Below are positions 22,683 through 36,129 of a stretch of 64,000 bases of DNA, in pieces. Source of the DNA: Pseudooceanicola nanhaiensis (GTDB lineage Bacteria; Pseudomonadota; Alphaproteobacteria; Rhodobacterales; Rhodobacteraceae); assembly GCF_020171315.1 (NCBI RefSeq), contig NZ_JAIUZP010000010.1, forward strand, positions 1-64,000, in the 5' to 3' direction. A model generated the notes under the pieces. It worked only from the letters and a program-made list of their open reading frames with translations. It did not search any database and was not told the origin of the DNA. A program made the position numbers and the translations under genes. Numbering within the stretch: position 1 is the stretch's first letter; each line of letters starts with the position of its first letter.

Positions 22683-25442
22683 TCAGCCCGCGGCGCGCTG
22701 ATCCGGGCGGAAGCTGATCCGGTCGGAGACCGTGAACCGGCCGCCCTTGACCTTGCGGATCTTGCCTTCGCGCAGCAGCTGGCCGAAGGAGCGCAGGCCG
22801 TCCTCGCGGGAGAAGCCCTCCATTTCCACCTGACGCACCTTGGTCATCAGCTGCGGACGCGAGAACTGGTCCCGCCCTTCGATGAAAGACAGGTAGGAGG
22901 CTGCGGCCTCCAGCACGTCGGGCAGGGCGACGGCGCCCATGGTCTCCGCGAACTCCGAGAAGGAGCCGGCCTGTGCCGCTTCGACGGAGACGTCCTCGTG
23001 ACGCTCGGCCTCGTTCTCTTCCTCGACCCGGCGGGCGAGGTCGGCGATGGTCACACGGCGCGGACGCACCGGGGCCTTCTGGGAGGCATCCAGCGTGTCG
23101 ATGCGCTGCTCGGCCACCAGCTTGAGCGGCGCGGGACGGTCCTCGGCGCGGCGCGTGGGCGTCTGGCCGGTGGGACGGGCGCGGCGGGGGCGCACGACCT
23201 GGGCGAGGTCATCGCGGTAGGCGTCGGTCTTCTTCGGCGCGGCGGCCAGATCGGAACCGGCCTGCTTCTCGGCGCGGGTCGCGGCGACGGCCGCCCGCAG
23301 GTGGGCGATGGCGCTGCGACGGCGGTTGCCTTCGCTCTCGCCCAGCTGGTTGTTGGTCTCGGCGAGGATACGATCCATGTCGCCGTCGGTGGCGGCTTCG
23401 CTGAGACGGGCGCGACGGGCCAGAACCGGACGGCGCGGGGACACGGGTGCCAGCTCTTCTTCGGCCACGGGCTCCTCGGCCACGGGGGCGTCCTCTTCGA
23501 GGGCCTCCTCGGGCTCTGCCTCCGCGGCAAGCGGTGCTTCGGCCTCGATGTCGTCCTCAGCCTCGGCGGCAAGGTCATCCTCGTCGTCATAGTCCGCGTC
23601 AGCCTCATCGTAGGCTTCGTCTTCCTCGGCCCATGCGTCGATGCGGCTGTCCTGCGTCGCCACGAAGGGCGTGTCGTCGTAGGCTTCTTCCTCTGCGACT
23701 TCCTCTGCGACGGCCTCATCCGCGTTCTCGTCTTCCGCGACGATCTCGTCCTCGGCGTAGGCGTCGTCTTCCTCGAGGTCCTCGGCGTAGAGCTCTTCCT
23801 CGACCAGGTCGGGGGTCTCGGCGGCCAGCGAGTCTTCGTGGATGTGACGCAGGGCTTCGCGCAGCTCGGCCTCGTCCTCGGAGGAGAGGGTGCTGATCTC
23901 GGCGTCGTAGCCTTCGAACGCATCCTCGTCTTCGGCTTCGTCGTCGAAGGCGGCTTCGACCTCTTCCTCGGCCTCAAGCGTTTCGGGCAGCGCCTCGGGC
24001 GCCTCCTCGACGGCGTCGACCTCGGTCATCTCTTCCGCGAAGACGGGGGCCTCATCGGCCAGCACCTCTTCCTCGGCGATCATCTCTTCAGCGACCAGTT
24101 CCTCGGCGACTGCCTCGGCGATCATCTCCTCGGCGACCGGCTCTTCGATCGTTTCCTCGACAACCGGGGCGGCGACGGCGGGCACGACGACGGGGCGGCT
24201 GGCACGCGGAGCGCCGCCTTCCAGATCGCTGCGCTTGACCTTCATCACGCGGGCCCAGCCGGTGGCGGGATCCTCGTCCGGTGCCGGGGCTTCCTCGGCA
24301 GCGGCGATGTCTTCCTCGTAGTCGGCTTCGGCGTCGATCTCTTCGTAGTCGTCCTCGTCGAAGAAGCCGTCGTCACCGGCCAGTTCGGCCTCCTCGAGGT
24401 CGTCCTCTTCGATCACCTCTTCGGTCTCGACGGAGAGGATCTCCTCCTCGGCCTCGACCATGTCCATCGTCTCGGCGGCCTGCATGGCGGCAACGGCGAC
24501 CTCGTCCTCGATCTCCTCGGCGTCCTCGTCCTCGATATAGGCTTCGGCCTCGGTGATCTCGGCGGGCTGACGGGCCACCACGGCGCGGATGCGCTGCAGC
24601 TTGGCGGCGACGGAATTGTCGATGGCCGGGGCCGGGGCGGCCTCTTCCTCGAGCGCCGCGGCAAGCACGTTCTCCTCTTCGTCATCGTCGCCGAAGAGCA
24701 GGTCGTCCTCGGCATCGAGGGCGTCGAAGTCTTCTTCCTCGGCGGTGTCGTCCTCGGCGCTGTGGGCGAGGGCGTCATCCCAGAGGTTGTCGGTGCTTTC
24801 GGACAGGGCGCTTTCGATGGCGGCGCTGAAGATCGCGTCGTCCTGCGCGGTGTCTTCGAGGACGTCTTCCTGCGCATCGGCGATGGCGGCCTCTGCGACG
24901 ACGTCTTCCTCGGGCACTTCGGGCAGATCGTCTGCTTCGGCGGTCTCTTCGGTGACCTCTTCGATCAGCGCCTCGGCGATGTCCTCCGCGATGGCCTCTT
25001 CGGCGATCTCCGCGACAGTGGCGACCTCGGTGACCACCTCGGCCTCGGCAACCTCGGCTTCGGCCGGGGCCTCCGCCACGGGCTCTGCGGCAGGTTGGGC
25101 GGGGGCAGGCTGCGAAACCGGGGCCTGAGACACGGGTGCCTGAGACACGGGGGCCTCTGCCGCCGGTTCAGCCACCGGAGCCGCAGCGGCCAGGCCGGGA
25201 CGCAGCAGGATGCCGCCTTCCTGGGCGCGGGCTTCGACGCGGTGGCCGTCACGGGCGGCGATACGGGCGATCAGCTCGGGGTCGGGGGTCGGCGGTTCCG
25301 CACCGAAATACCGGTCGTCCGCTGCCAGATCACGGAAGTATTCCGCGATGGATTTCATCATGTCGAAGGCGTCGTCAAACCCCTCGAGGGTGCACGAGAA
25401 CGTGCCATACGACACCGTGAGGATCTTGTTTGACTCTACCAC
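22683..25442 (-). CDS. Giant acidic protein with conserved ends, function unknown
   Basis: A 919-residue protein in three parts. The N-terminus (about 1-85: SYGTFSCTLEGFDDAFDMMKSIAEYFRDL) and the C-terminus (about 800-919: YLSFIEGRDQFSRPQLMTKVRQ, REGKIRKVKGGRFTVSD) look conserved and folded; the latter resembles a small winged-helix. Between them are about 600 residues of Glu/Asp/Ala/Val low-complexity sequence with EEAVAEE-like repeats, surely disordered. The frame begins with GTG at 25442. I recall similar proteins being annotated as hypothetical, or misleadingly as CheA, in Rhodobacteraceae. It is divergent from the thiamine pyrophosphokinase gene. Confidence 0.8.
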   Translation of the reverse strand: MVESNKILTVSYGTFSCTLEGFDDAFDMMKSIAEYFRDLAADDRYFGAEPPTPDPELIARIAARDGHRVEARAQEGGILLRPGLAAAAPVAEPAAEAPVSQAPVSQAPVSQPAPAQPAAEPVAEAPAEAEVAEAEVVTEVATVAEIAEEAIAEDIAEALIEEVTEETAEADDLPEVPEEDVVAEAAIADAQEDVLEDTAQDDAIFSAAIESALSESTDNLWDDALAHSAEDDTAEEEDFDALDAEDDLLFGDDDEEENVLAAALEEEAAPAPAIDNSVAAKLQRIRAVVARQPAEITEAEAYIEDEDAEEIEDEVAVAAMQAAETMDMVEAEEEILSVETEEVIEEDDLEEAELAGDDGFFDEDDYEEIDAEADYEEDIAAAEEAPAPDEDPATGWARVMKVKRSDLEGGAPRASRPVVVPAVAAPVVEETIEEPVAEEMIAEAVAEELVAEEMIAEEEVLADEAPVFAEEMTEVDAVEEAPEALPETLEAEEEVEAAFDDEAEDEDAFEGYDAEISTLSSEDEAELREALRHIHEDSLAAETPDLVEEELYAEDLEEDDAYAEDEIVAEDENADEAVAEEVAEEEAYDDTPFVATQDSRIDAWAEEDEAYDEADADYDDEDDLAAEAEDDIEAEAPLAAEAEPEEALEEDAPVAEEPVAEEELAPVSPRRPVLARRARLSEAATDGDMDRILAETNNQLGESEGNRRRSAIAHLRAAVAATRAEKQAGSDLAAAPKKTDAYRDDLAQVVRPRRARPTGQTPTRRAEDRPAPLKLVAEQRIDTLDASQKAPVRPRRVTIADLARRVEEENEAERHEDVSVEAAQAGSFSEFAETMGAVALPDVLEAAASYLSFIEGRDQFSRPQLMTKVRQVEMEGFSREDGLRSFGQLLREGKIRKVKGGRFTVSDRISFRPDQRAAG

Positions 25443-27312: not shown

Positions 27313-27924
27313 TCAGGCGGCGGTGATCTTCTCGACCGCCTCGGCGCAGGTCATCACGTCGGTGACCGACCCCAGCGAGACCAGCGTCGCGTCGTGGACC
27401 TTCTGCGAGAACGCCGCGCAGCCATCCGACAGCAGTACGGTGTGAATGCCGCGCAGGTGCGCATCGCGCAGGGTGGAGGCGACGCCGCCGTTGGTGACGA
27501 TCCCGCCGACGATCAGCGTGTCCACCCCGATGGCCTTCAGCACGTATTCCAGCCGGGTCTGGTAGAAGGCGGAGTAGTTGATCTTCTCGACCGTGAAATC
27601 GGCGGGCTTCAGGCTGTCGACGAGGTCATGGCCAAAACTGCCCGGCTCGAAATCGCCGCGGCCGAGGAAGGGGCGCAGCGCCTTCAGGTGCGGGGCGATC
27701 AGCGGCTCGCGCCCGTGGTGCGGCACCAGCGTGAACTGGGCCGAGACATAGCTGCCCCCCTTGGCCCGCAGCGCGTCGATCACCGGCTTCACCCGGTCGG
27801 GCAGGGCCGCGATCTCGGGCGCGCTCTGGCCGCCGCGGCCATAGGCCCCCTCGGGGTGGAGGAAATCGTTCTGCAGGTCGATGGTCAGCACCGCGGTGCG
27901 GGCCGGGTCGATGGCGTGGCTCAT
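27313..27924 (-). CDS. Isochorismatase-fold hydrolase lacking the usual cysteine
   Basis: A 203-residue member of the cysteine-hydrolase/isochorismatase superfamily (maleamate amidase, nicotinamidase, N-carbamoylsarcosine amidase). Asp16 (IDLQNDF) and Lys114 (VEKINYSAF) are in place, but the cis-peptide and nucleophile segment reads G-I-V-T-N-G-G-V, with Gly147 where amidohydrolases have Cys. True isochorismatases also lack that Cys. It lies 91 bp downstream of the GntR gene on the same strand. A maleamate-amidase role, suggested by the neighbouring isomerase-like gene, conflicts with the missing Cys. Confidence 0.82.
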   Translation of the reverse strand: MSHAIDPARTAVLTIDLQNDFLHPEGAYGRGGQSAPEIAALPDRVKPVIDALRAKGGSYVSAQFTLVPHHGREPLIAPHLKALRPFLGRGDFEPGSFGHDLVDSLKPADFTVEKINYSAFYQTRLEYVLKAIGVDTLIVGGIVTNGGVASTLRDAHLRGIHTVLLSDGCAAFSQKVHDATLVSLGSVTDVMTCAEAVEKITAA

Positions 27925-28015
27925 GGTCGGGGTCCTTGTTGGGAGAGGCGTTTTTCGTGGCCGCGCGTCGTGGCGCTGCGCCCGGAAGACGCGACGCCCC
28001 CCGGCGCGGACCGGG

Positions 28016-28867
28016 TTATGGCGTCTTAGGGGCCTTTGCCGCGGGCGCGCCGGGGCGGTCGGGGCGTCCTTCCGGGCGTCCGGTGGGGCGGGGCACCCAG
28101 GCGGCGCCGTTGTCGCCCTGCACCCGGCGCATCGCCACTTCGATCTGGTAGAGCTCGGGCCGGTAGAGGACGCGGATGAATTCCACCGGGCGGTCCTGCG
28201 CATCGAAGACCACGCGCCGCGTGTCGATGAGCGGCGCACCCATGGGCACATCCAGCGCGGCGGCACTCAGCGCGTCGGCCAGCGTGGCGGTGATCGTCTG
28301 GGTGGCGGAGCTGACGGAAATCCCCGCGCGCTCCAACTGCAACAGCATCGGCGTGGGGCTTTCGGCCTCCAGCGCGGCGCCCTCGGCCACATCCTCGGGG
28401 ATCCAGGCCTCGAGGAAGGAGACGCTCTGATCGTTCAGCGAGCGGACGCGGCGCGATTGCAGGGCGCGCGCGCCCTCGGGCAGGTTGAGCGCCGCGCGGA
28501 TTTCAGGCGGGGCAGGCATCAGGGCAGAGGAGAGGACGCGCACGGCGGTGTTGCGCCCCATCTCGCCCACCTTTTCCAGCAGCCCGTCGATACTGGCCTT
28601 CAGCGGCTGCGGCGGCAGCCGGTCGGTCACCCGCGTGCCGCTGCCGCGCTTGCGGATCACCAGCCCGGTATCGGCCAGCTCGTTGAGCGCCCGCTTGGCC
28701 GTGATCCGCGACACGTCATAGGCCTCGCAGAGCTCCGCCTCGCCCATGATCTTGTCGCCGGGCTGCAGGGCGCCGCCATGTATCTGGCTGCGCAGCAGGA
28801 GGTAGAGCTGCTGGTAGAGCGGGACCGGAGAGCCCGGATCGAGGGTGGCGCTATTTTGGGCTGTCAC
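28016..28867 (-). CDS. GntR/HutC-family transcriptional regulator
   Basis: A 283-residue regulator with an N-terminal winged helix (about 14-80: PLYQQLYLLLRSQI, GEAELCEAYDVSRITAKRALNELADTGLV) and a C-terminal UTRA ligand domain (about 100-240: FLEAWIPEDVA, VEFIRVLYRPELYQ). The tail is Pro/Ala-rich. It starts with GTG. It is divergent from the FAD monooxygenase operon and probably controls that operon and its own through the symmetric sites in the 152-bp gap. The inducer is likely a pathway intermediate. Confidence 0.88.
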   Translation of the reverse strand: MTAQNSATLDPGSPVPLYQQLYLLLRSQIHGGALQPGDKIMGEAELCEAYDVSRITAKRALNELADTGLVIRKRGSGTRVTDRLPPQPLKASIDGLLEKVGEMGRNTAVRVLSSALMPAPPEIRAALNLPEGARALQSRRVRSLNDQSVSFLEAWIPEDVAEGAALEAESPTPMLLQLERAGISVSSATQTITATLADALSAAALDVPMGAPLIDTRRVVFDAQDRPVEFIRVLYRPELYQIEVAMRRVQGDNGAAWVPRPTGRPEGRPDRPGAPAAKAPKTP

Positions 28868-28909
28868 GATCTGTCCCTGCTGAAGCTGTCTGCCTGTCTC
28901 ATCTTTATC

Positions 28910-28973
28910 GTTGACATAATGATATATCTATAGACCAAATGAAATGGCTTATTGGCATAACATTATGACAAAC
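28910..28973. promoter_or_regulatory. Candidate GntR operator pair in divergent promoter
   Basis: Two related half sites face each other: GTTGACATAATG at 28910-28921 and CATTATGACAAAC at 28961-28973. They sit in an AT-rich block between the divergent GntR and FAD-monooxygenase genes, the natural place for an autoregulated operator. Assignment to GntR is inference. Confidence 0.45.
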
Positions 28974-29019
28974 TGGTGCCGGCCCAGCCGGATGCCTGAA
29001 AATTAGAGGAAAGAGGCCC

Positions 29020-30192
29020 TTGGCGCAGAAGACAATCCTGATCGTGGGCGCAGGGCCGGTGGGGCTGACCCTTGCATGGCGTCTGGTCGAGGCCGGGCTC
29101 GACGTGAAGGTTTTCGAGGCAGATGCCGAGATTTCCGACCAGCTCCGGGCCTCCACCTTCCATCCGCCGACGCTGGACATGCTGGCGCCCGCGGGAATCA
29201 CGCAAAAGCTGATCGACAAGGGGCGGATCACGCCGACCTGGCAGATCCGCATGCAGTCCACCGGCGAGAAGGCGGAATTCGATCTTGCCGTGTTGAAGGA
29301 TGACACCGACCATCCCTATCGCCTGCAGTGCCGCCAGGCCGAGCTGAGCCGCGCCGTCTACGCCCTGCTACCCGAAGGCACGGTGCAGTTCGGCGCCGAG
29401 GTGACGGAAGTGTCGCAGGATGCCTCGGGCGTGCGGCTGGTGGCCAATGGCGAGGAGCATCGCGGTTGGGCCATCGTCGGCTGTGACGGGGCGCGCAGCC
29501 TCGTGCGCAAGGCCGTGGGGGCCGAGTTCGAAGGTACGACCTACCCGGAAAGCACGATCCTCGTGACCACGCATTTCCCCTTCGAAGAACACCTCGAAGG
29601 GCTGTCGGGCGTGAACTACATCTGGAAGCCGGGCGGCACCTATTCGCTGCTGCGTCTGCCCGATCTCTGGCGCGTCTCGCTGCATCCGCAGGAGGGGCAG
29701 GACGTCGAGGACGCGCTGTCCGACGCATCCATCCGCGCCCAGACCCGCGCCGTGGTGCCCGAGGCCGGGGACATCGATATCGAGGAGAAACGCGTCTACC
29801 GCGTCCATCGTCGCGTCGCATCGACCTACCGCAAGGGGATGATGTTCCTCTGCGGGGATGCGGCGCACCTCAACAGCCCCAAGGGCGGCATGGGGCTGAA
29901 CGGCGGCGTGCATGACGCCTTCAACCTCGCCGAGAAGCTGGCCGCCGTGGCGGCGGGCGAGAGCGACGCGCTGCTCGACCTCTACGAGGCGCAGCGCCGC
30001 CCGATCGCCCGGGATGACATCCTCGCGCAGGCGGACGAGAACCGCCGCCGCATGAACACCACCGACCCGGAAGAGCGCCTCAACCACCTGCGCCGGCTTC
30101 AGGGCATCTCGGCCGACCCGGCGAAGGCGCGGGAGTTCCTGCTGCGCTCCTCCATGATCAGCGGGCTGCGCCGCATGGCAGAGCTGGCATGA
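29020..30192 (+). CDS. FAD-dependent monooxygenase (aromatic hydroxylase type)
   Basis: A 390-residue group-A flavin hydroxylase. The Rossmann motif is ILIVGAGPVGLTLAWRL, the DG motif GCDGARSLVRKAVG, and the GD motif FLCGDAAHLNSPKGGMGLN. Such enzymes hydroxylate aromatic or heteroaromatic rings with NAD(P)H and O2. The start is a TTG at 29020 with AGAGGAAAGAGG upstream; the next Met would delete the flavin-binding motif. First gene of a probable seven-gene operon; its stop overlaps the SDR start. Confidence 0.88.
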   Translation: MAQKTILIVGAGPVGLTLAWRLVEAGLDVKVFEADAEISDQLRASTFHPPTLDMLAPAGITQKLIDKGRITPTWQIRMQSTGEKAEFDLAVLKDDTDHPYRLQCRQAELSRAVYALLPEGTVQFGAEVTEVSQDASGVRLVANGEEHRGWAIVGCDGARSLVRKAVGAEFEGTTYPESTILVTTHFPFEEHLEGLSGVNYIWKPGGTYSLLRLPDLWRVSLHPQEGQDVEDALSDASIRAQTRAVVPEAGDIDIEEKRVYRVHRRVASTYRKGMMFLCGDAAHLNSPKGGMGLNGGVHDAFNLAEKLAAVAAGESDALLDLYEAQRRPIARDDILAQADENRRRMNTTDPEERLNHLRRLQGISADPAKAREFLLRSSMISGLRRMAELA

Positions 30193-30911
30193 CCCGCGCA
30201 TTGGCCATCCTTGGCGGCTGCGGCGGCATCGGCCGCCAGCTGGTGCGCGACGCACAGGCGGCAGGCTACACGCCCATCGTGCTGGACCTGCCGCGTTCGA
30301 TCGAGGCCCACCCGCTGGAGGGCGTCACCTGCATCGCCGTCGATGCCACCAGCGAGGACAGCCTCGCCGCCGCCGCCGCGCAGCTGCCTCAGCTGGCCGG
30401 GGTCGTGAACCTCTGTGGCTACGTGACCGAGGCGCTGCCGGTGATGGACCACGACGCCGCCGACTGGGCCGCGGCGATGGAGGGCAACCTGCACTCGGCC
30501 TTCCTCGCGGCCAAGGCGCTGGTGCCCCATATCGCGCCGGGCGGCGCGCTGGTGATGACGGGCTCTGGCCTCGGTCACTTCGCGCGCCCGGGCTACGGGC
30601 CCTATGCGCTTTCCAAGGCGGGCGTCGCCATGCTGACCAAGCAACTGGCGCTGGAACTGGCCCCCGACGTGCGGGTCAATTGCGTCGCGCCCTCGGCGGT
30701 GGAAACCGCCTTCCTCACCGGCGGCACGGGCCGCTCGGACGAGGCGGCGCCCAGCCGGTTCGACACCAAGGCCTACGGCGCGAACATTCCCATGGGCCGC
30801 ATCGCGCAGCCCGCGGACATCACTCAACCCATTCTCTTCCTGCTGTCGGATGCGGCTGGCTACATCACGGGCCAGATCCTGCACATCAACGGCGGCGCCT
30901 ACATGCCATGA
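30189..30911 (+). CDS. Short-chain dehydrogenase/reductase
   Basis: A 240-residue NAD(P)-dependent oxidoreductase with GGCGGIGR at the nucleotide site and catalytic Y-x3-K in GPYALSKAG. The usual NNAG is changed to NLCGY, and the serine lies in VMTGSGLG. The C-terminus (GQILHINGGAYMP) is classical. It overlaps the FAD monooxygenase by four bases and is followed after 10 bp by aldehyde dehydrogenase, suggesting alcohol-to-aldehyde-to-acid steps in one pathway. Confidence 0.88.
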   Translation: MTRALAILGGCGGIGRQLVRDAQAAGYTPIVLDLPRSIEAHPLEGVTCIAVDATSEDSLAAAAAQLPQLAGVVNLCGYVTEALPVMDHDAADWAAAMEGNLHSAFLAAKALVPHIAPGGALVMTGSGLGHFARPGYGPYALSKAGVAMLTKQLALELAPDVRVNCVAPSAVETAFLTGGTGRSDEAAPSRFDTKAYGANIPMGRIAQPADITQPILFLLSDAAGYITGQILHINGGAYMP

Positions 30912-30921
30912 AAGACCTGAC

Positions 30922-32412
30922 ATGAGTTTTGACCTTCCCATCCAGCCGCCCGAACGCATCACCGGCCTCGTGAACGGGACGGCCAGCCTCGGCGGCGGGA
31001 TCGACCTGCCGGTCTTCTACCCGGCCACCGGGGCCCAGATCGCCACGCTGACCGAGGATGACGAAACCTCCGTCGCCCGCGCGGTGGAAGCGGCCCGCGC
31101 CGCCTTCGACAAGGGCCCCTGGCCGGGCCTGAGCACGGCCAAGCGGATCGAGGCGCTGGAAGCCTGCCGCGCCGTGATCCTCGCCAACGTGGACGAACTC
31201 GCCCGCCTCGAATGCGCTGCCACCGGCCTCGTCCTTGAAGAGCTGCGGGCGCGCCACATGACGCGGGCGGCCTACAACTTCCGCTTCTTCGCCGAATACA
31301 TCAGCCAGTCGGCGGGGCAGAGCTATACCCAGACCGAGGGTTACCTGACGACCGTGACCCGCGAGCCGGTCGGCGTCGCCGCCCTGATCGCCCCGTGGAA
31401 CGCGCCGGTGGCACTGGCCACGATGAAGATCGCCGCCTCCCTCGCCTTCGGGAACACGGCCGTGCTGAAACCCTCCGAGCAGACGCCGATGGCACTAGCC
31501 CGTCTGGTCGAGCTGCTGCAGGAGGTCCTGCCCGAGGGCGTGCTGAACATCGTCAACGGGCGCGGGGCCGTGACCGGTGCCGCGCTGGTCGCGCATCCCG
31601 GCGTCGACCTCGTCAGCTTCACCGGCGGGACGGAAACGGGCCGGGCGATCATGTCCTCCGCCGGGCGCAACCTCGTGCCCTGCACGATGGAGCTGGGCGG
31701 CAAGTCGGCCAACATCATCTTCGCCTCCGCCGATCAGGAGCGCGCGCTGGACGGCGCGCTTCAGGGCATCTTCTCCAACAACGGGCAGCAGTGCCTCGCC
31801 GGCTCCCGCGTGCTGGTGGAACGCACGATCTTCGACGATTTCGTGGGCCGGTTCCGGGAACGGGCGGCCAAGGTCCGTGTCGGCGATCCGCTGGCCGGGG
31901 ATACCGAGGTCGGGCCGCTGGCGTCGCTGGCGCATATGAACCGGGTGCTGGGCTTCGTCGACAAGGCGCGCGAGGACGGTGGCCAGCTGCTGGTGGGTGG
32001 CGCCCGGCGCGAGGATCTGGGCGAGGGCTATTTCATCTCCCCCACGGCGGTGCTGGCGAATTCCAACGCCGACCGCTGCGCGCAGGACGAGATCTTTGGC
32101 CCCTTCGCCACCTTCATTCCCTTCGACACGGCGGACGAGGCCGTGGCGATTGCCAATGACACGGCCTTCGGGCTGGTCAGCTATGTCTGGTCGGATCACC
32201 TGCCGACGGTCATGGCGACGACCCCGCGCCTGCGCTCCGGCGTGGTCTGGGTCAACACGCCGATGATGCGCGAGCTGCGCGCACCCTTCGGCGGCTACAA
32301 GACCTCCGGCGTGGGCCGTGAGGGCGGCGCTTCGTGCGAGGCGTTCTATACAGAAGAAAAGACCACGACCATTCCGACGATCCCGCCGGCGCTGCGACGC
32401 TTCGGGGCCTGA
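30922..32412 (+). CDS. Aldehyde dehydrogenase
   Basis: A 496-residue NAD(P)-dependent ALDH superfamily enzyme. The oxyanion asparagine is in IAPWNAPVAL, the general-base glutamate in MELGGKSANIIF, the catalytic cysteine in NNGQQCLAGSR, and the late motif EIFGPFATFIPF. The start at 30922 follows the SDR stop at 10 bp. The real aldehyde is unknown; the context is aromatic or heterocycle catabolism. Confidence 0.93.
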   Translation: MSFDLPIQPPERITGLVNGTASLGGGIDLPVFYPATGAQIATLTEDDETSVARAVEAARAAFDKGPWPGLSTAKRIEALEACRAVILANVDELARLECAATGLVLEELRARHMTRAAYNFRFFAEYISQSAGQSYTQTEGYLTTVTREPVGVAALIAPWNAPVALATMKIAASLAFGNTAVLKPSEQTPMALARLVELLQEVLPEGVLNIVNGRGAVTGAALVAHPGVDLVSFTGGTETGRAIMSSAGRNLVPCTMELGGKSANIIFASADQERALDGALQGIFSNNGQQCLAGSRVLVERTIFDDFVGRFRERAAKVRVGDPLAGDTEVGPLASLAHMNRVLGFVDKAREDGGQLLVGGARREDLGEGYFISPTAVLANSNADRCAQDEIFGPFATFIPFDTADEAVAIANDTAFGLVSYVWSDHLPTVMATTPRLRSGVVWVNTPMMRELRAPFGGYKTSGVGREGGASCEAFYTEEKTTTIPTIPPALRRFGA

Positions 32413-32474
32413 ATGTGGGCCTCAATCTGGGCCTGATCGGAAGACCTCATAAATAACCAACAGGGAAACGAAAC

Positions 32475-33485
32475 ATGTCTTACTTCAAAACCTTCGCGGG
32501 CTCTGTCGCCCTTGCGGTCGCGGCCATGTCCACGCCCGCCGTCGCCGCCGACATGATCAAGGTCGGTGCCTTCGTGCCCGAGCAATCCACCGGCGTGGCC
32601 AAGGTCATCAAGCCCTGGCTCGAAGCCGTGCAGGCCGAGGCGGGCGACACCGTCAAGATGCAGCCCTTCTGGGGCGGCACCCTGGGCAAGGACCCGTTCA
32701 AGCAGTTCGAGCTGGTGCAGAACGGCGTGGCTGACGTGACCTGGGTGCTGCCCGGCTACACCGCAGGCCAGTTCCCGGAAATGGGCCTCTTCGAGCTGCC
32801 CTTCTTCTTCCGCACCGCGCAGGAAGCCTCGACCGTCGGCTGGAAGCTGAACGAGATGGGCCTGCTGACCGGCTTTGACGGCGTGCATGTCGTCGGCTTC
32901 TTCGCCGCCGAACCCAACGCGATCTTCATGAAGACCACGGTCGAGAGCCTCGACGGGCTGGCCAACCTCAAGGTCCGCTCGGCCGGTGCGATCCAGGCCA
33001 AGTGGCTGGAAAGCCTCGGCGCGGCACCCCAGACGCTGAGCTCGGCCGAGTTCAACGAGGGCATCTCGCGCGGGACGGTCGATGGCGCGATCCAGGGCTG
33101 GACCGGCATGAAGACCTTCAAGTCGCTGCCGCTGGTCGATCAGGCGATCGAAGCCCCCGCCGGCGCGATCCCCTTCCTGCTGCTGATGAACGAACGCAAG
33201 TGGGAAGGCCTGACGCCCGAGCTGCAGGAGATCGTCATGAAGCACGGCGGCATGGCCTTCGCCGAGGCCGGTGGTGAGGCCTATGCCTCGGCCGGGGCCG
33301 CGATCCGTGAAGAGGTCAAGGCCGAGGGCCGGATCGCGATCATGGAGCTGAGCGACGAAGAGCTGGCCAAGTACGAAGAGGCCGCCAAGCCGATCCACGA
33401 CGAATGGATCGCCAGCACCCCCAACGGGCAGGCGGTCTATGACGCGGCGGTCAAGCTGCTGGCCGACATGCGCGGCGAAAGCTGA
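32475..33485 (+). CDS. TRAP transporter solute-binding protein (DctP type)
   Basis: A 336-residue periplasmic receptor with a signal peptide (MSYFKTFAGSVALAVAAMS..., cleavage after PAVAA). The DctP fold has the conserved arginine of the ligand pocket in NLKVRSAGAIQAKWLESLGA, which usually binds a carboxylate. It is followed by the small and large membrane subunits. Together they import an organic acid using the Na+ or proton gradient, probably the substrate of the upstream oxidative enzymes. Confidence 0.92.
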   Translation: MSYFKTFAGSVALAVAAMSTPAVAADMIKVGAFVPEQSTGVAKVIKPWLEAVQAEAGDTVKMQPFWGGTLGKDPFKQFELVQNGVADVTWVLPGYTAGQFPEMGLFELPFFFRTAQEASTVGWKLNEMGLLTGFDGVHVVGFFAAEPNAIFMKTTVESLDGLANLKVRSAGAIQAKWLESLGAAPQTLSSAEFNEGISRGTVDGAIQGWTGMKTFKSLPLVDQAIEAPAGAIPFLLLMNERKWEGLTPELQEIVMKHGGMAFAEAGGEAYASAGAAIREEVKAEGRIAIMELSDEELAKYEEAAKPIHDEWIASTPNGQAVYDAAVKLLADMRGES

Positions 33486-33496
33486 GAGAGGGCGTC

Positions 33497-34042
33497 ATGA
33501 ACACCGCTCAGAAGATCGACCGGATCACCCAGAACGCGGCCGTCATCGGCTTTTCCGGGCTCGTGGTCATGGCGCTTCTCATCACCTGGGACGGGGCGGC
33601 ACGCTACCTGTGGCTGCCCCGGATCTCGGGCTTCTCGGACTATGGGGAGGTCGTCTTCCCCATCGTCATCGCAAGCTGCTTCCCGGCCGGTCTGCTGCGC
33701 CAGACCAACGTCACCGTCCGGGTCTTCGGCACGCTGGGCGGGCCGCGCCTGCACGCCGCGCTGGAAGCCTTCGGCGCGCTGCTGACGCTGGCCTTCTTTG
33801 GCCTGCTGACCTGGCAGTTCATCCGCCTCACCGGCCAGTTCGAAAGCGGCGGGCGCACGACCCGCACCATCGGCCTGCCGCTGGCACCCTACTGGTACGT
33901 CGTCACCGCCATCATGGCCGTCTGTGTCCCGGTGCAGGTCTACGTGGCCTGGTCGTGGATCAAGGCCGCGCTGCGCGGGGACACGCCCGACATCGCCGCC
34001 CTGCGCGATGCCGAAGAAGACCTCGCCGATTTCGAAGGATAA
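33497..34042 (+). CDS. TRAP transporter small permease (DctQ type)
   Basis: A 181-residue membrane protein with four helices (about 15-35, 50-70, 85-110, 130-155), the topology of DctQ. It lies 11 bp after the binding-protein gene and 6 bp before the large permease. The C-terminus (ALRDAEEDLADFEG) is cytoplasmic and acidic. Confidence 0.88.
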   Translation: MNTAQKIDRITQNAAVIGFSGLVVMALLITWDGAARYLWLPRISGFSDYGEVVFPIVIASCFPAGLLRQTNVTVRVFGTLGGPRLHAALEAFGALLTLAFFGLLTWQFIRLTGQFESGGRTTRTIGLPLAPYWYVVTAIMAVCVPVQVYVAWSWIKAALRGDTPDIAALRDAEEDLADFEG

Positions 34043-34048
34043 GCCCTC

Positions 34049-35362
34049 ATGTTTTCCGATCCATTCGTGACCGGCCTGCTCGGGCTGGCCGCCATGTTCG
34101 CGCTGATCGTCCTGCAGGTGCCCGTGGGCATCGCCATGGGGCTGACCGGCGTGGTGGGCTGCGGCCTGATCATCGGCTTCGGCCCCGCGCTGACCCTGCT
34201 GGCGACCGAGCCCTCCTCGGCCATGTCCTCCGAGGGCTATGCCGTGATCGCCATGTTCCTGCTGATGGGCAACTTCGCCCATGTGGGCGGCCTCTCGCGC
34301 GAACTCTACAAGCTCGCCTATGTCTACCTCGGCCACCTGCGCGGCGGCCTCGTCTTTGCCACGGTGGGGGCCTGCGCGGGCTTCGGCGCGATCTGCGGCT
34401 CCTCCGTGGCGACGGCGGCGACCATGGCGCGCATCGCGCTGCCCGAGATGCTGGAACGCGGCTATGCCAAGTCGCTGGCCGCGGGCTCCATCGCTGCCGG
34501 CGGGACGCTGGGCATGATCGTGCCGCCTTCGGTGGTGATGATCCTCTACGGCATCCTGACCGAGAACTCGATCATCGCGCTCTTCCTCGCGGCCATCGTG
34601 CCGGGCGTCATCGCGGTGGTCTTCTATTTCATCGCCGTCTTCATCGTCGTGCGCCGCAACCCCGAGGCCGCCCCCGTGGGCGAGAAGGCCCCTTGGGCTG
34701 AACGCCGCCGGGTGACGATCCAGAGCTGGGCCGTGGTCCTGCTGGCGGTCATGGTGTCGGGCGGCATCTACTCCGGCATCTTCACCGTGTCCGAGGCGGC
34801 CTCGGTCGGGGCCTCCGTCGCGCTGCTGCTGGCGATCTTCCGGCGCCGCCTGACGGTGAAGAACTTCCTCGCGGCGCTTGGCGACACGGCGGCCAACACC
34901 GGCATGATCTTCGTCATGATCATCGGCGCCTCGGTCTTTTCCTACTTCGCCACGCTGTCGGGCCTGCCCGCGGCAACGGTGAGCTGGATCCAGGGCCTCG
35001 GCCTGCCGCCCTTCCTCGTGCTGATGCTGCTGATGCTCTTCTACCTGATCCTCGGCGCGATCTTCGACACGATCGCCGCCATGGTGCTGACGCTGCCCTT
35101 CGTCTACCCGCTGATCCTCGGCCTCGGCTACGATCCGGTCTGGTGGGGCGTGATCAACATCGTGGTGATCGAACTGGGCATGATCACCCCGCCCATCGGG
35201 ATCAACGTCTTCGTCCTGCACGGCATGGCCAAGGACCTGCCGCTCAGCACGATCTTCCGGGGCGTGGTGCCCTTCATCTTCGCTGACGTCGCGCGTCTGG
35301 TGGTCCTGATCACCTTCCCGGCGCTCAGCCTCTGGCTTCCGGGAGCAATGGGATGGCTGTGA
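34049..35362 (+). CDS. TRAP transporter large permease (DctM type)
   Basis: A 437-residue membrane protein with the DctM pattern of twelve helices or hairpins and family motifs such as GAICGSSVATAATM, AGGTLGMIVPPSVVMILYG and ITPPIGINVFVLHG. It forms the transport channel of the TRAP system. The end overlaps the start of the next gene by 10 bp, so the isomerase-like protein is translated from the same message. Confidence 0.93.
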   Translation: MFSDPFVTGLLGLAAMFALIVLQVPVGIAMGLTGVVGCGLIIGFGPALTLLATEPSSAMSSEGYAVIAMFLLMGNFAHVGGLSRELYKLAYVYLGHLRGGLVFATVGACAGFGAICGSSVATAATMARIALPEMLERGYAKSLAAGSIAAGGTLGMIVPPSVVMILYGILTENSIIALFLAAIVPGVIAVVFYFIAVFIVVRRNPEAAPVGEKAPWAERRRVTIQSWAVVLLAVMVSGGIYSGIFTVSEAASVGASVALLLAIFRRRLTVKNFLAALGDTAANTGMIFVMIIGASVFSYFATLSGLPAATVSWIQGLGLPPFLVLMLLMLFYLILGAIFDTIAAMVLTLPFVYPLILGLGYDPVWWGVINIVVIELGMITPPIGINVFVLHGMAKDLPLSTIFRGVVPFIFADVARLVVLITFPALSLWLPGAMGWL

Positions 35363-36129
35363 GAGAATACGGTAACGCGGGCACCATCGGGGTCCTGACC
35401 CCGCAGGCCAATACCACGGTCGAGCCCGAGCTCTGGTCCCTGCTGCCGGCCCACTGGTCGATGCTGAACGCGCGGCTGACCTCGGACAAGGACACGATCG
35501 AGAAGCGGCTGGTGGATTACACCACCAAGTTCACCGAGACCTCGGGCCAGTTCGCCAATGCGCCGGTCGACGTGCTGGCCGCGGCCTGCACCGGGGCGTC
35601 CTACCTGATCGGCGGGGCGGAAGAGGCCAAGCGTGTCGACGAGGTCCAGACCGCCCGGGGGCTGCCCTTCCTGACGGCAGCGCTCGCCTCGGTCGCGGCG
35701 CTGCGCGAGATGGGGGCAAAGAAGATCGCCCTGCTGACGCCGTACCCCGAGAGCCTCAACGAGAAGTCCACGCCCTACTGGGAGAGCTTCGGCTTCGAGG
35801 TGGTGGCCAAGTCCGGTCCCGCGCTGGAGACCGAGGCCTTCCACCCGATCTATGCCATGACCGGCCCGGGCGTGTTGCAGGCCTACCGCGAGCTGTCGCG
35901 CAGCGGCGCGGATGCGGTGCTGATGCTGGGGACCGGCATGGCCACGCTCTACCCGATGATCGCCGGGGCGGAGGAGGGGCTGATCCCCTCGGTCTCCTGC
36001 AACGTGGCGCTGGTCTGGGGCTGCGTACAGTGCAAGCCGTGGGAGGAGCTGTCGGGCCATGACCTCGAAGGCTGGACCACGGGCAAGCTCTGGCGCGAGC
36101 GGCTGGAGCTGATGTTCCCGGCGGGATAG
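35353..36129 (+). CDS. Maleate isomerase/AMDase-like protein, second Cys absent
   Basis: A 258-residue protein of the aspartate/glutamate racemase superfamily, closest to maleate cis-trans isomerase and arylmalonate decarboxylase (TIGVLTPQANTTVEPEL, LPFLTAALASVAAL, KKIALLTPYPESLN). The first catalytic Cys is present (Cys79, AAACTGAS). The second, normally in a SCT-type motif, appears to be replaced at MLGTGMATL (residues 191-199); Cys216 lies further on. Maleate isomerases need both, and decarboxylases of the family use one. It is the last gene of the operon, so it probably acts late on a dicarboxylate. Confidence 0.8.
   Translation: MAVREYGNAGTIGVLTPQANTTVEPELWSLLPAHWSMLNARLTSDKDTIEKRLVDYTTKFTETSGQFANAPVDVLAAACTGASYLIGGAEEAKRVDEVQTARGLPFLTAALASVAALREMGAKKIALLTPYPESLNEKSTPYWESFGFEVVAKSGPALETEAFHPIYAMTGPGVLQAYRELSRSGADAVLMLGTGMATLYPMIAGAEEGLIPSVSCNVALVWGCVQCKPWEELSGHDLEGWTTGKLWRERLELMFPAG

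What the first reader, a model, noticed from the sequence alone, without database searches (positions are those of the whole stretch)
27313..36129. Undescribed-looking catabolic locus: hydroxylase, SDR, ALDH, TRAP, isomerase
A GntR regulator and hydrolase diverge from a seven-gene operon with flavin hydroxylase, SDR, ALDH, three TRAP subunits and a maleate-isomerase-like enzyme. It recalls the nicotinate pathway (NicC, NicF, NicE), but the ring-cleavage dioxygenase and deformylase are absent and two enzymes have altered active sites. It may break down another carboxylated ring compound or an open-chain acid.
Basis: partly seen in the sequence, partly recalled or inferred. Interest (0 to 1): 0.7.

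Follow-up and report, generated by a model that had tools for sequence, protein, structure and literature searches.

The report
Aromatic-acid breakdown operon, odd isomerase
A marine bacterium carries a rare set of genes that probably imports an aromatic acid and breaks it down with an oxygen-using enzyme and an unusual isomerase-like partner that has one active-site cysteine instead of the usual two.

Summary
A GntR/UTRA regulator and an isochorismatase-fold protein diverge from seven collinear genes: flavin monooxygenase (FMO), SDR, ALDH, TRAP DctP/Q/M, and a maleate-isomerase/AMDase-fold protein (MAI). Both active-site changes are confirmed: the hydrolase has Gly for the nucleophilic Cys, as has a 66%-identical homologue; MAI keeps the N-terminal Cys but has Gly-Thr for the second one in 21 of 21 members aligned.
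The nicotinate comparison is only partly right: the FMO is nearer PnpA and HspB than NicC. MAI lies in the same locus as this FMO in 18 of 21 related loci; ALDH in 13, SDR in 7, TRAP and an isochorismatase-fold gene in 5 each. Minimal operons are FMO-ALDH-MAI and FMO-SDR-ALDH-MAI. None of six ring-cleavage families occurs in all 12 carrier genomes tested, but intradiol genes occur in all five closest carriers.
Best reading: uptake and catabolism of a hydroxylated (hetero)aromatic acid; the FMO dearomatises or opens the ring, ALDH oxidises an aldehyde, MAI acts as a single-thiol isomerase or opposite-face decarboxylase. Substrate unknown. New variant of a known kind.

The parts
27313..27924 (-). 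isochorismatase-fold protein (ISO), 203 aa; Asp and Lys kept, nucleophilic Cys replaced by Gly (TNGGVAS)
28016..28867 (-). GntR-family regulator with UTRA domain, 283 aa
28868..29019 (.). divergent intergenic region; AT-rich TAATGATATA motif (candidate operator) found in window, L003, L004 and L027, 4 of 6 regions examined (not L028, L020); ribosome site GAGGAAAGAGG before the TTG start
29020..30192 (+). single-component FAD monooxygenase (FMO), 390 aa, PnpA/HspB-like
30189..30911 (+). short-chain dehydrogenase (SDR), 240 aa, YxxxK present (read by eye); accessory: absent between FMO and ALDH in L028 and L030
30922..32412 (+). aldehyde dehydrogenase (ALDH), 496 aa, nearest HpaE-type; catalytic Cys (GQQC) and Glu (MELGG) present (read by eye)
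32475..33485 (+). TRAP solute-binding protein DctP, 336 aa
33497..34042 (+). TRAP small membrane subunit DctQ, 181 aa
34049..35362 (+). TRAP large membrane subunit DctM, 437 aa
35353..36129 (+). maleate isomerase/AMDase-fold protein (MAI), 258 aa; Cys79 kept, Gly193-Thr194 in place of the second Cys

Best explanation
An inducible uptake-and-catabolism operon for a hydroxylated aromatic or hetero-aromatic carboxylate. Shown: gene content, conserved partners, active-site residues, predicted fold of MAI. Inferred: the chemistry. GntR/UTRA controls the divergent promoters; the TRAP system imports the acid; the PnpA/HspB-type FMO hydroxylates the ring para or ipso to a hydroxyl with O2 and NAD(P)H, so that the ring is dearomatised or opened without a dedicated dioxygenase; SDR (accessory) and the HpaE-type ALDH oxidise an alcohol or aldehyde so formed; MAI, the constant partner of the FMO, acts on the resulting unsaturated or gem-dicarboxylate through its single cysteine. 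Most likely it is an isomerase whose intermediate is stabilised by conjugation and so needs no second acid (as with glutathione-dependent maleylpyruvate isomerase, recalled); second choice, a decarboxylase with its cysteine on the face opposite to that of AMDase. The Gly-type hydrolase is an optional helper, perhaps an enol or enamide hydrolase rather than an amidase.
For: FMO nearest solved relatives are PnpA and HspB. In the FMO clade of the window (22 members with the window; FastTree, midpoint root, branch supports not examined) MAI is in the same locus in 18 of 21 loci; L027, L060 and L032 are the exceptions, and their genomes (G250, G358, G000) carry a MAI homologue elsewhere. Within 7.5 kb, ALDH is near in 13 of 21, GntR in 8, SDR in 7, DctP in 5, an isochorismatase-fold gene in 5. 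Minimal operons FMO-SDR-ALDH-MAI (L029) and FMO-ALDH-MAI (L030) have unrelated scanned neighbours. Two sister FMO loci (46%) have a sister TRAP (DctP 50-52%, DctM 59%) and a GST of 349-356 aa. Two clade loci carry a second ring hydroxylase of 553-561 aa in the same locus. MAI model pLDDT 87.4, best match P. putida Iso(C200A) with maleate, TM 0.72. Of 21 MAI members Cys79 is in 19 and Gly193 in 21; 7 of 7 racemase-type relatives have both Cys. None of six ring-cleavage families is in all 12 carrier genomes. TRAP uptake of aromatic acids is documented in PMC5812351 and PMC12442348 (passages).
Against: No substrate or product is shown. PnpA and HspB make a quinone or a diol (recalled), which would still need ring cleavage; intradiol genes occur in all five closest carriers, so an unlinked dioxygenase is not excluded for them. 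The glyoxalase-fold protein of the sister loci L082 and L083 belongs to a superfamily that includes extradiol dioxygenases (recalled) and could be a ring-cleavage enzyme there. Two MAI members (L064, L065) have Thr for Cys79, so the thiol is not strictly needed, and the MAI2 group has neither Cys in 8 of 8. VOC extradiol and most cupin dioxygenases were not searched for. Members are not independent: L003 is nearly identical to the window, and L064 and L065 come from one genus. The DctP model failed (pLDDT 43.5), so the ligand class of the TRAP protein is untested. Of the sister clade only 4 of 6 loci were read at 10-14 kb (none had MAI).
Confidence: 0.42

Rival explanations
1. The FMO makes a hydroquinone, catechol or dihydroxypyridine that a dioxygenase encoded elsewhere (for instance the intradiol enzymes of the genome) cleaves; the operon is then an ordinary peripheral pathway feeding a general one.
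For: PnpA and HspB give a quinone or diol (recalled); intradiol dioxygenase (PF00775) in all 5 closest carriers and 10 of 12 overall, 4 matches in the own genome; one LigB in the own genome; PF04209 in 10 of 12 (2 of them weak), gentisate type in 9 of 12 at E<=0.001; glyoxalase-fold protein beside two sister FMOs.
Against: None of the six families appeared among the 80 neighbouring proteins of related loci scanned with Pfam (not every neighbour was scanned) or in the six flanking genes of the window; no single family of six is in all 12 carriers (two of the 12 genomes are 84-87% complete); the own genome lacks PF04209, gentisate-type and PnpD_N matches; the constant MAI remains unexplained.
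Confidence: 0.28
2. MAI is a natural decarboxylase with the cysteine on the opposite face from AMDase (layout of the engineered G74C/C188G variant), removing CO2 from a malonate-like product of FMO and ALDH.
For: Matched by eye on the DAxL motif: Cys79 falls at AMDase position 74, Gly193 at 188, Thr80 and Tyr131 at Thr75 and Tyr126; the best Pfam and NCBIfam hits are AMDase models, the Pfam one over its cut-off, the NCBIfam equivalog far below; G74C/C188S and G74C/C188G variants are stated to give the (S) product (PMC12576825 passages); the G74C/C188S structure is among the fold matches.
Against: The PxxNxxxE motif and the best sequence and structure matches are of maleate isomerase; AMDase criteria Gly74, Cys188, Ser76 and Pro15 are not met, five pocket criteria were not checked; the engineered G74C/C188S variant is 20,000-fold slower than wild type before further substitutions.
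Confidence: 0.22
3. A nicotinate or nicotine-type pathway: NicC/HspB, NicF, NicE counterparts releasing maleate and fumarate.
For: HspB is the second-best solved relative of the FMO; Iso from P. putida S16 is the best structural match of MAI; isochorismatase-fold protein present.
Against: No 2,5-dihydroxypyridine dioxygenase or deformylase among the nine genes and six flanking ones; ISO lacks the amidase Cys; MAI lacks the second Cys, and the C194S mutant of a maleate isomerase is the form that holds the covalent intermediate (title).
Confidence: 0.08

Closest known systems
Nicotine pyrrolidine pathway of Pseudomonas putida S16 (HspB, Iso, Ami; pathway recalled)
   Same: HspB-type FMO and Iso-fold protein; an aldehyde-oxidising enzyme and an isochorismatase-fold protein at hand
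   Different: no linked dihydroxypyridine dioxygenase or deformylase; hydrolase lacks the Cys; MAI lacks the second Cys; ALDH scores higher with HpaE (483 bits) than SSADH (326 bits), both below cut-off
Nicotinate catabolism nic genes (NicC, NicF, NicE; recalled)
   Same: same broad enzyme classes
   Different: FMO much farther from NicC than from PnpA/HspB; NicX and NicD absent from the locus
PnpA (4-nitrophenol 4-monooxygenase; function recalled)
   Same: closest solved relative of the FMO, over 381 residues
   Different: no PnpD_N hydroquinone dioxygenase match in 11 of 12 carrier genomes including this one
Arylmalonate decarboxylase (AMDase) and TRAP-linked AMDase clusters, PMC4996985
   Same: fold; TRAP neighbours in some clusters; Thr75 and Tyr126 equivalents
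   Different: Cys at 74 and Gly at 188 instead of Gly at 74 and Cys at 188; the word monooxygenase does not occur in that paper's main text
Maleate isomerase (2xec/2xed, 4fq5/4fq7)
   Same: fold, PxxNxxxE motif, nucleophilic N-terminal Cys
   Different: second Cys replaced by Gly-Thr in 21 of 21 clade members aligned

Membership tests
Maleate isomerase (NicE/MaiA/Iso) | Asp/Glu racemase-superfamily fold | tested here: met
   predicted model pLDDT 87.4; 4fq5 TM 0.72, E 2.2e-13
Maleate isomerase (NicE/MaiA/Iso) | two catalytic cysteines | tested here: not met
   Cys79 present, second position Gly-Thr
Maleate isomerase (NicE/MaiA/Iso) | maleate to fumarate activity | not testable with these tools
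   needs an assay
Arylmalonate decarboxylase | Gly74 with Cys188 | tested here: not met
   Cys79 and Gly193 at these positions
Arylmalonate decarboxylase | Thr75 and Tyr126 of the dioxyanion hole | tested here: met
   Thr80 and Tyr131, matched by eye; Ser76 of the same hole is not met (Gly81)
Arylmalonate decarboxylase | pocket residues L40, V43, Y48, V156, M159 | not tested
   -
Arylmalonate decarboxylase | NCBIfam equivalog cut-off 225 bits | tested here: not met
   54.8 bits
NicF-type maleamate amidase / cysteine hydrolases of the isochorismatase fold | Asp-Lys-Cys triad | tested here: not met
   Asp and Lys kept, Cys is Gly; Gly in 3 of 13 proteins compared (window, L003, L031), Cys in 10
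Isochorismatase (PhzD/EntB type) | Gly at the nucleophile position (recalled) | tested here: inconclusive
   Gly present in ISO; PhzD/EntB were not aligned residue by residue here
Class A FAD monooxygenase (PnpA/HspB type) | FAD_binding_3 domain over most of the chain with GxGxxG and GD motifs | tested here: met
   E 4.4e-59, residues 5-331 of 390; alignments
Nicotinate pathway | linked NicX-type dioxygenase and NicD deformylase | tested here: not met
   absent among the nine genes and the six flanking ones
Pathway with an unlinked common ring-cleavage dioxygenase | one dioxygenase family in all carriers | tested here: inconclusive
   not met for six families: PF04209 10/12, TIGR02272 9/12 (2 over cut-off), PF00775 10/12, PF02900 8/12, PF18191 1/12, PF02073 1/12; but PF00775 5/5 in the closest carriers, and VOC extradiol and most cupins not tested
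DctPQM TRAP transporter | three subunits DctP, DctQ, DctM | tested here: met

The most novel reading that the evidence does not exclude
The FMO and MAI together form an undescribed dioxygenase-free ring-opening module, passed among Alphaproteobacteria with changing transporters and helpers, in which MAI represents a natural 'mirror-image' clade of the Asp/Glu racemase superfamily (Cys at position 74, none at 188) with its own chemistry: a single-thiol isomerase, or the natural opposite-face counterpart of AMDase.
Probability: 0.27. Interest if true: 0.72.

Novelty: new variant of a known kind. Interest (0 to 1): 0.5.

Why it matters
If the FMO and MAI act together, bacteria have a compact way to open aromatic acids without a ring-cleavage dioxygenase, and one that is easy to miss because its parts are annotated only by superfamily. 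The MAI clade keeps exactly the cysteine that AMDase lacks and lacks the one AMDase uses, a layout known to me only from engineered enzymes (PMC12576825 passages). PMC4996985 calls the conserved enantiopreference of AMDases puzzling and says their natural substrate remains to be identified (passage). The natural clade makes the question of what one cysteine on that face does directly testable.

Tried and rejected
Homarine or trigonelline catabolism: considered from memory; the listing showed no such operon, and the nine genes include no N-demethylase or two-component oxygenase. Maleimide/cyclic-imide route: suggested by HyuA/HyuB, a PEP-mutase-type lyase and a possible cyclic-imide hydrolase near more distant FMOs; set aside for the window because none of these is in its operon. 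The 'allantoinase-like' label of that hydrolase (cl21) is my guess: it had no Pfam match at 1e-6. MHPCO-type ring opening: kept only as an analogy; MHPCO is not named among the 60 solved relatives shown of 108. TRAP ligand by structure: the DctP model had pLDDT 43.5 from three sequences and was not searched; that its nearest solved relatives (5i5p, 5im2, 4nap/4pgn) bind aromatic or indole acids is recalled, and two paper searches for their codes gave no paper on them (PMC9973260, listed for 4PGP, gave no passage in its main text). Identity of the GST near L082/L083 as a glutathionyl-hydroquinone reductase is recalled from length and domains, not tested.

Rows dropped: for the FMO tree and context count the short loci L001, L002, L011-L019, L035-L039 and L041, the duplicate L008 and the non-FMO loci L066-L070 were left out; longer versions of the same places were used where fetched. 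Context was counted within 7.5 kb, but loci are 3.6-21 kb long (some of the more distant ones 3-4 kb), so absences in short loci are weak.


Full report
What is there. The window lies in a genome of 4.8 Mb in 30 contigs; by its 97.2-99.6% identical copy in Maritimibacter alkaliphilus SY-2-18, same nine genes in the same order, it is Maritimibacter-like. On the minus strand lie a GntR/UTRA regulator (28016-28867) and an isochorismatase-fold protein (27313-27924). On the plus strand lie FMO (29020-30192), SDR (30189-30911), ALDH (30922-32412), DctP, DctQ, DctM (32475-35362) and MAI (35353-36129). Three genes on either side are unrelated and hold no dioxygenase. The divergent region holds an AT-rich TAATGATATA motif that recurs in L003, L004 and L027, so in 4 of the 6 regions examined.

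How rare it is. At E<=1e-100 the FMO is in 7 of 295 sampled genomes of the family, own genome included, and not in the one other genome of the genus that was listed; at E<=1e-95 in 18 of 385 of the class sample and 2 of 398 of the phylum sample, the own genome included in both. It is an accessory locus.

The core. A FastTree of 47 FMOs from loci plus the window, rooted at the midpoint and read without branch supports, places the window in a clade of 22. In 18 of the 21 other loci a MAI gene is in the same locus. The three exceptions are L027 (G250), L060 (G358) and L032 (a second FMO of the own genome, beside hydantoinase A/B). G250 and G358 have MAI homologues of 41% and 43% elsewhere, and 7 of 7 carrier genomes searched have one. 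Within 7.5 kb ALDH is near in 13 of 21, GntR in 8, SDR in 7, DctP in 5, an isochorismatase-fold gene in 5. L029 has only FMO-SDR-ALDH-MAI and L030 only FMO-ALDH-MAI, with unrelated scanned neighbours. So the hydrolase, the SDR and the transporter are interchangeable, while FMO and MAI are the constant pair.

The transporter goes with the FMO further back. In the sister FMO clade of six loci, four were read at 10-14 kb and none had MAI or ALDH. Two of them (L082, L083) carry a TRAP system whose DctP is 50-52% and DctM 59% identical to the window's, plus a GST of 349-356 aa and a glyoxalase-fold protein. I read the GST as a hint of quinone chemistry (recalled link to glutathionyl-hydroquinone reductases); the glyoxalase-fold protein could itself be a ring-cleavage enzyme, which would speak against a dioxygenase-free route in that clade. 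In L061 and L065 a second ring hydroxylase of 553-561 aa is in the same locus as the FMO, adjacent in L065 and with ALDH and SDR between in L061. These points, and the closeness to PnpA and HspB, favour a phenolic or hydroxy-heteroaromatic substrate.

Altered active sites. MAI is predicted to fold like maleate isomerase (pLDDT 87.4; best match Iso(C200A) of P. putida S16 with maleate, TM 0.72). Of 37 superfamily proteins aligned, the 21 MAI members (window included; L077 and L078 are copies not linked to the FMO) have Cys at position 79 in 19 and Thr in 2 (L064, L065, one genus), and Gly at 193 in 21 of 21. Seven racemase-type relatives have both Cys; the eight MAI2 proteins next to more distant FMOs have neither; one paralogue in the own genome (L085) has the AMDase layout, Gly then Cys, and another (L084) both. 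Against the motifs of PMC4996985 (passages; matched by eye), Cys79 is at AMDase position 74 and Gly193 at 188, so the layout is that of the engineered G74C/C188G and C188S variants (PMC12576825 passages). In maleate isomerase the C194S mutant holds a covalent succinyl-cysteine (title), so plain maleate isomerisation by this enzyme is doubtful. The hydrolase has Gly for the nucleophilic Cys; so have its 66%-identical homologue in L031 and the nearly identical L003, whereas the other 10 of 13 proteins compared keep Cys.

Is a ring-cleavage gene hidden elsewhere? In 12 carrier genomes: PF04209 in 10 (two weak), TIGR02272 in 9 (2 over its cut-off), PF00775 in 10, PF02900 in 8, PF18191 in 1, PF02073 in 1. 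No family is in all 12; G539 has only the intradiol type and G578 and G486 have none of it. Against my reading, all five closest carriers (G000, G250, G142, G277, G148) have intradiol genes, so an unlinked dioxygenase remains possible for them. Two of the 12 genomes are only 84-87% complete. VOC extradiol and most cupin enzymes were not searched. Among 80 neighbouring proteins of related loci scanned with Pfam none belonged to the six families; not every neighbour was scanned.

Other contexts. More distant members carry hydantoinase A/B, a PEP-mutase-type lyase, aconitase, NMT1-type binding proteins, PhyH proteins, CoA-transferases or methyltransferases, so the FMO-MAI pair seems to be used on several substrates.

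Verdict. A real, rare, coherent catabolic operon; the aromatic-acid reading is likely, the exact substrate unknown. The constant FMO-MAI pair and the mirrored single-cysteine MAI clade are the interesting parts. No matching pathway turned up in the listings of ten paper searches of an open-access library (two of them were for structure codes), which does not hold most subscription journals. Papers: PMC4996985 abstract and passages; PMC12576825, PMC12661438, PMC5812351 and PMC12442348 passages; PMC9973260 searched, no passage found.

Noticed in passing
own genome C4, about 305689-306870 (locus L032): A second FMO of the same clade (48-49% identical) lies directly after hydantoinase A and B genes and before an aminotransferase.
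   Followed up: partly
L021, L022, L026, L033, L034, L056, L057: More distant FMOs pair with a second MAI-like group (MAI2) that lacks both cysteines in 8 of 8 proteins; several of these loci also have a PEP-mutase-type lyase or an isochorismatase-fold gene that keeps its Cys.
   Followed up: partly
L084 and L085 (own genome C8 and C14): Two further members of the Asp/Glu racemase superfamily in the own genome: L084 with both Cys and L085 with the AMDase layout (Gly, Cys), so three layouts coexist in one genome.
   Followed up: partly
L006, L062, L063, L081: Methyltransferases of 372-505 aa with an unassigned N-terminal part recur within about 5 kb of FMO genes; L062 and L063 also have peptide-type binding proteins (the L006 gene is inferred from 37% identity to that of L063).
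   Followed up: no
L010 and L078: PhyH-family proteins lie next to FMO-MAI in L010 and near the unlinked MAI copy in L078.
   Followed up: no
22683-25442 (-): A 919-aa very acidic, repetitive protein without a Pfam match at 0.001 lies upstream of the locus.
   Followed up: no
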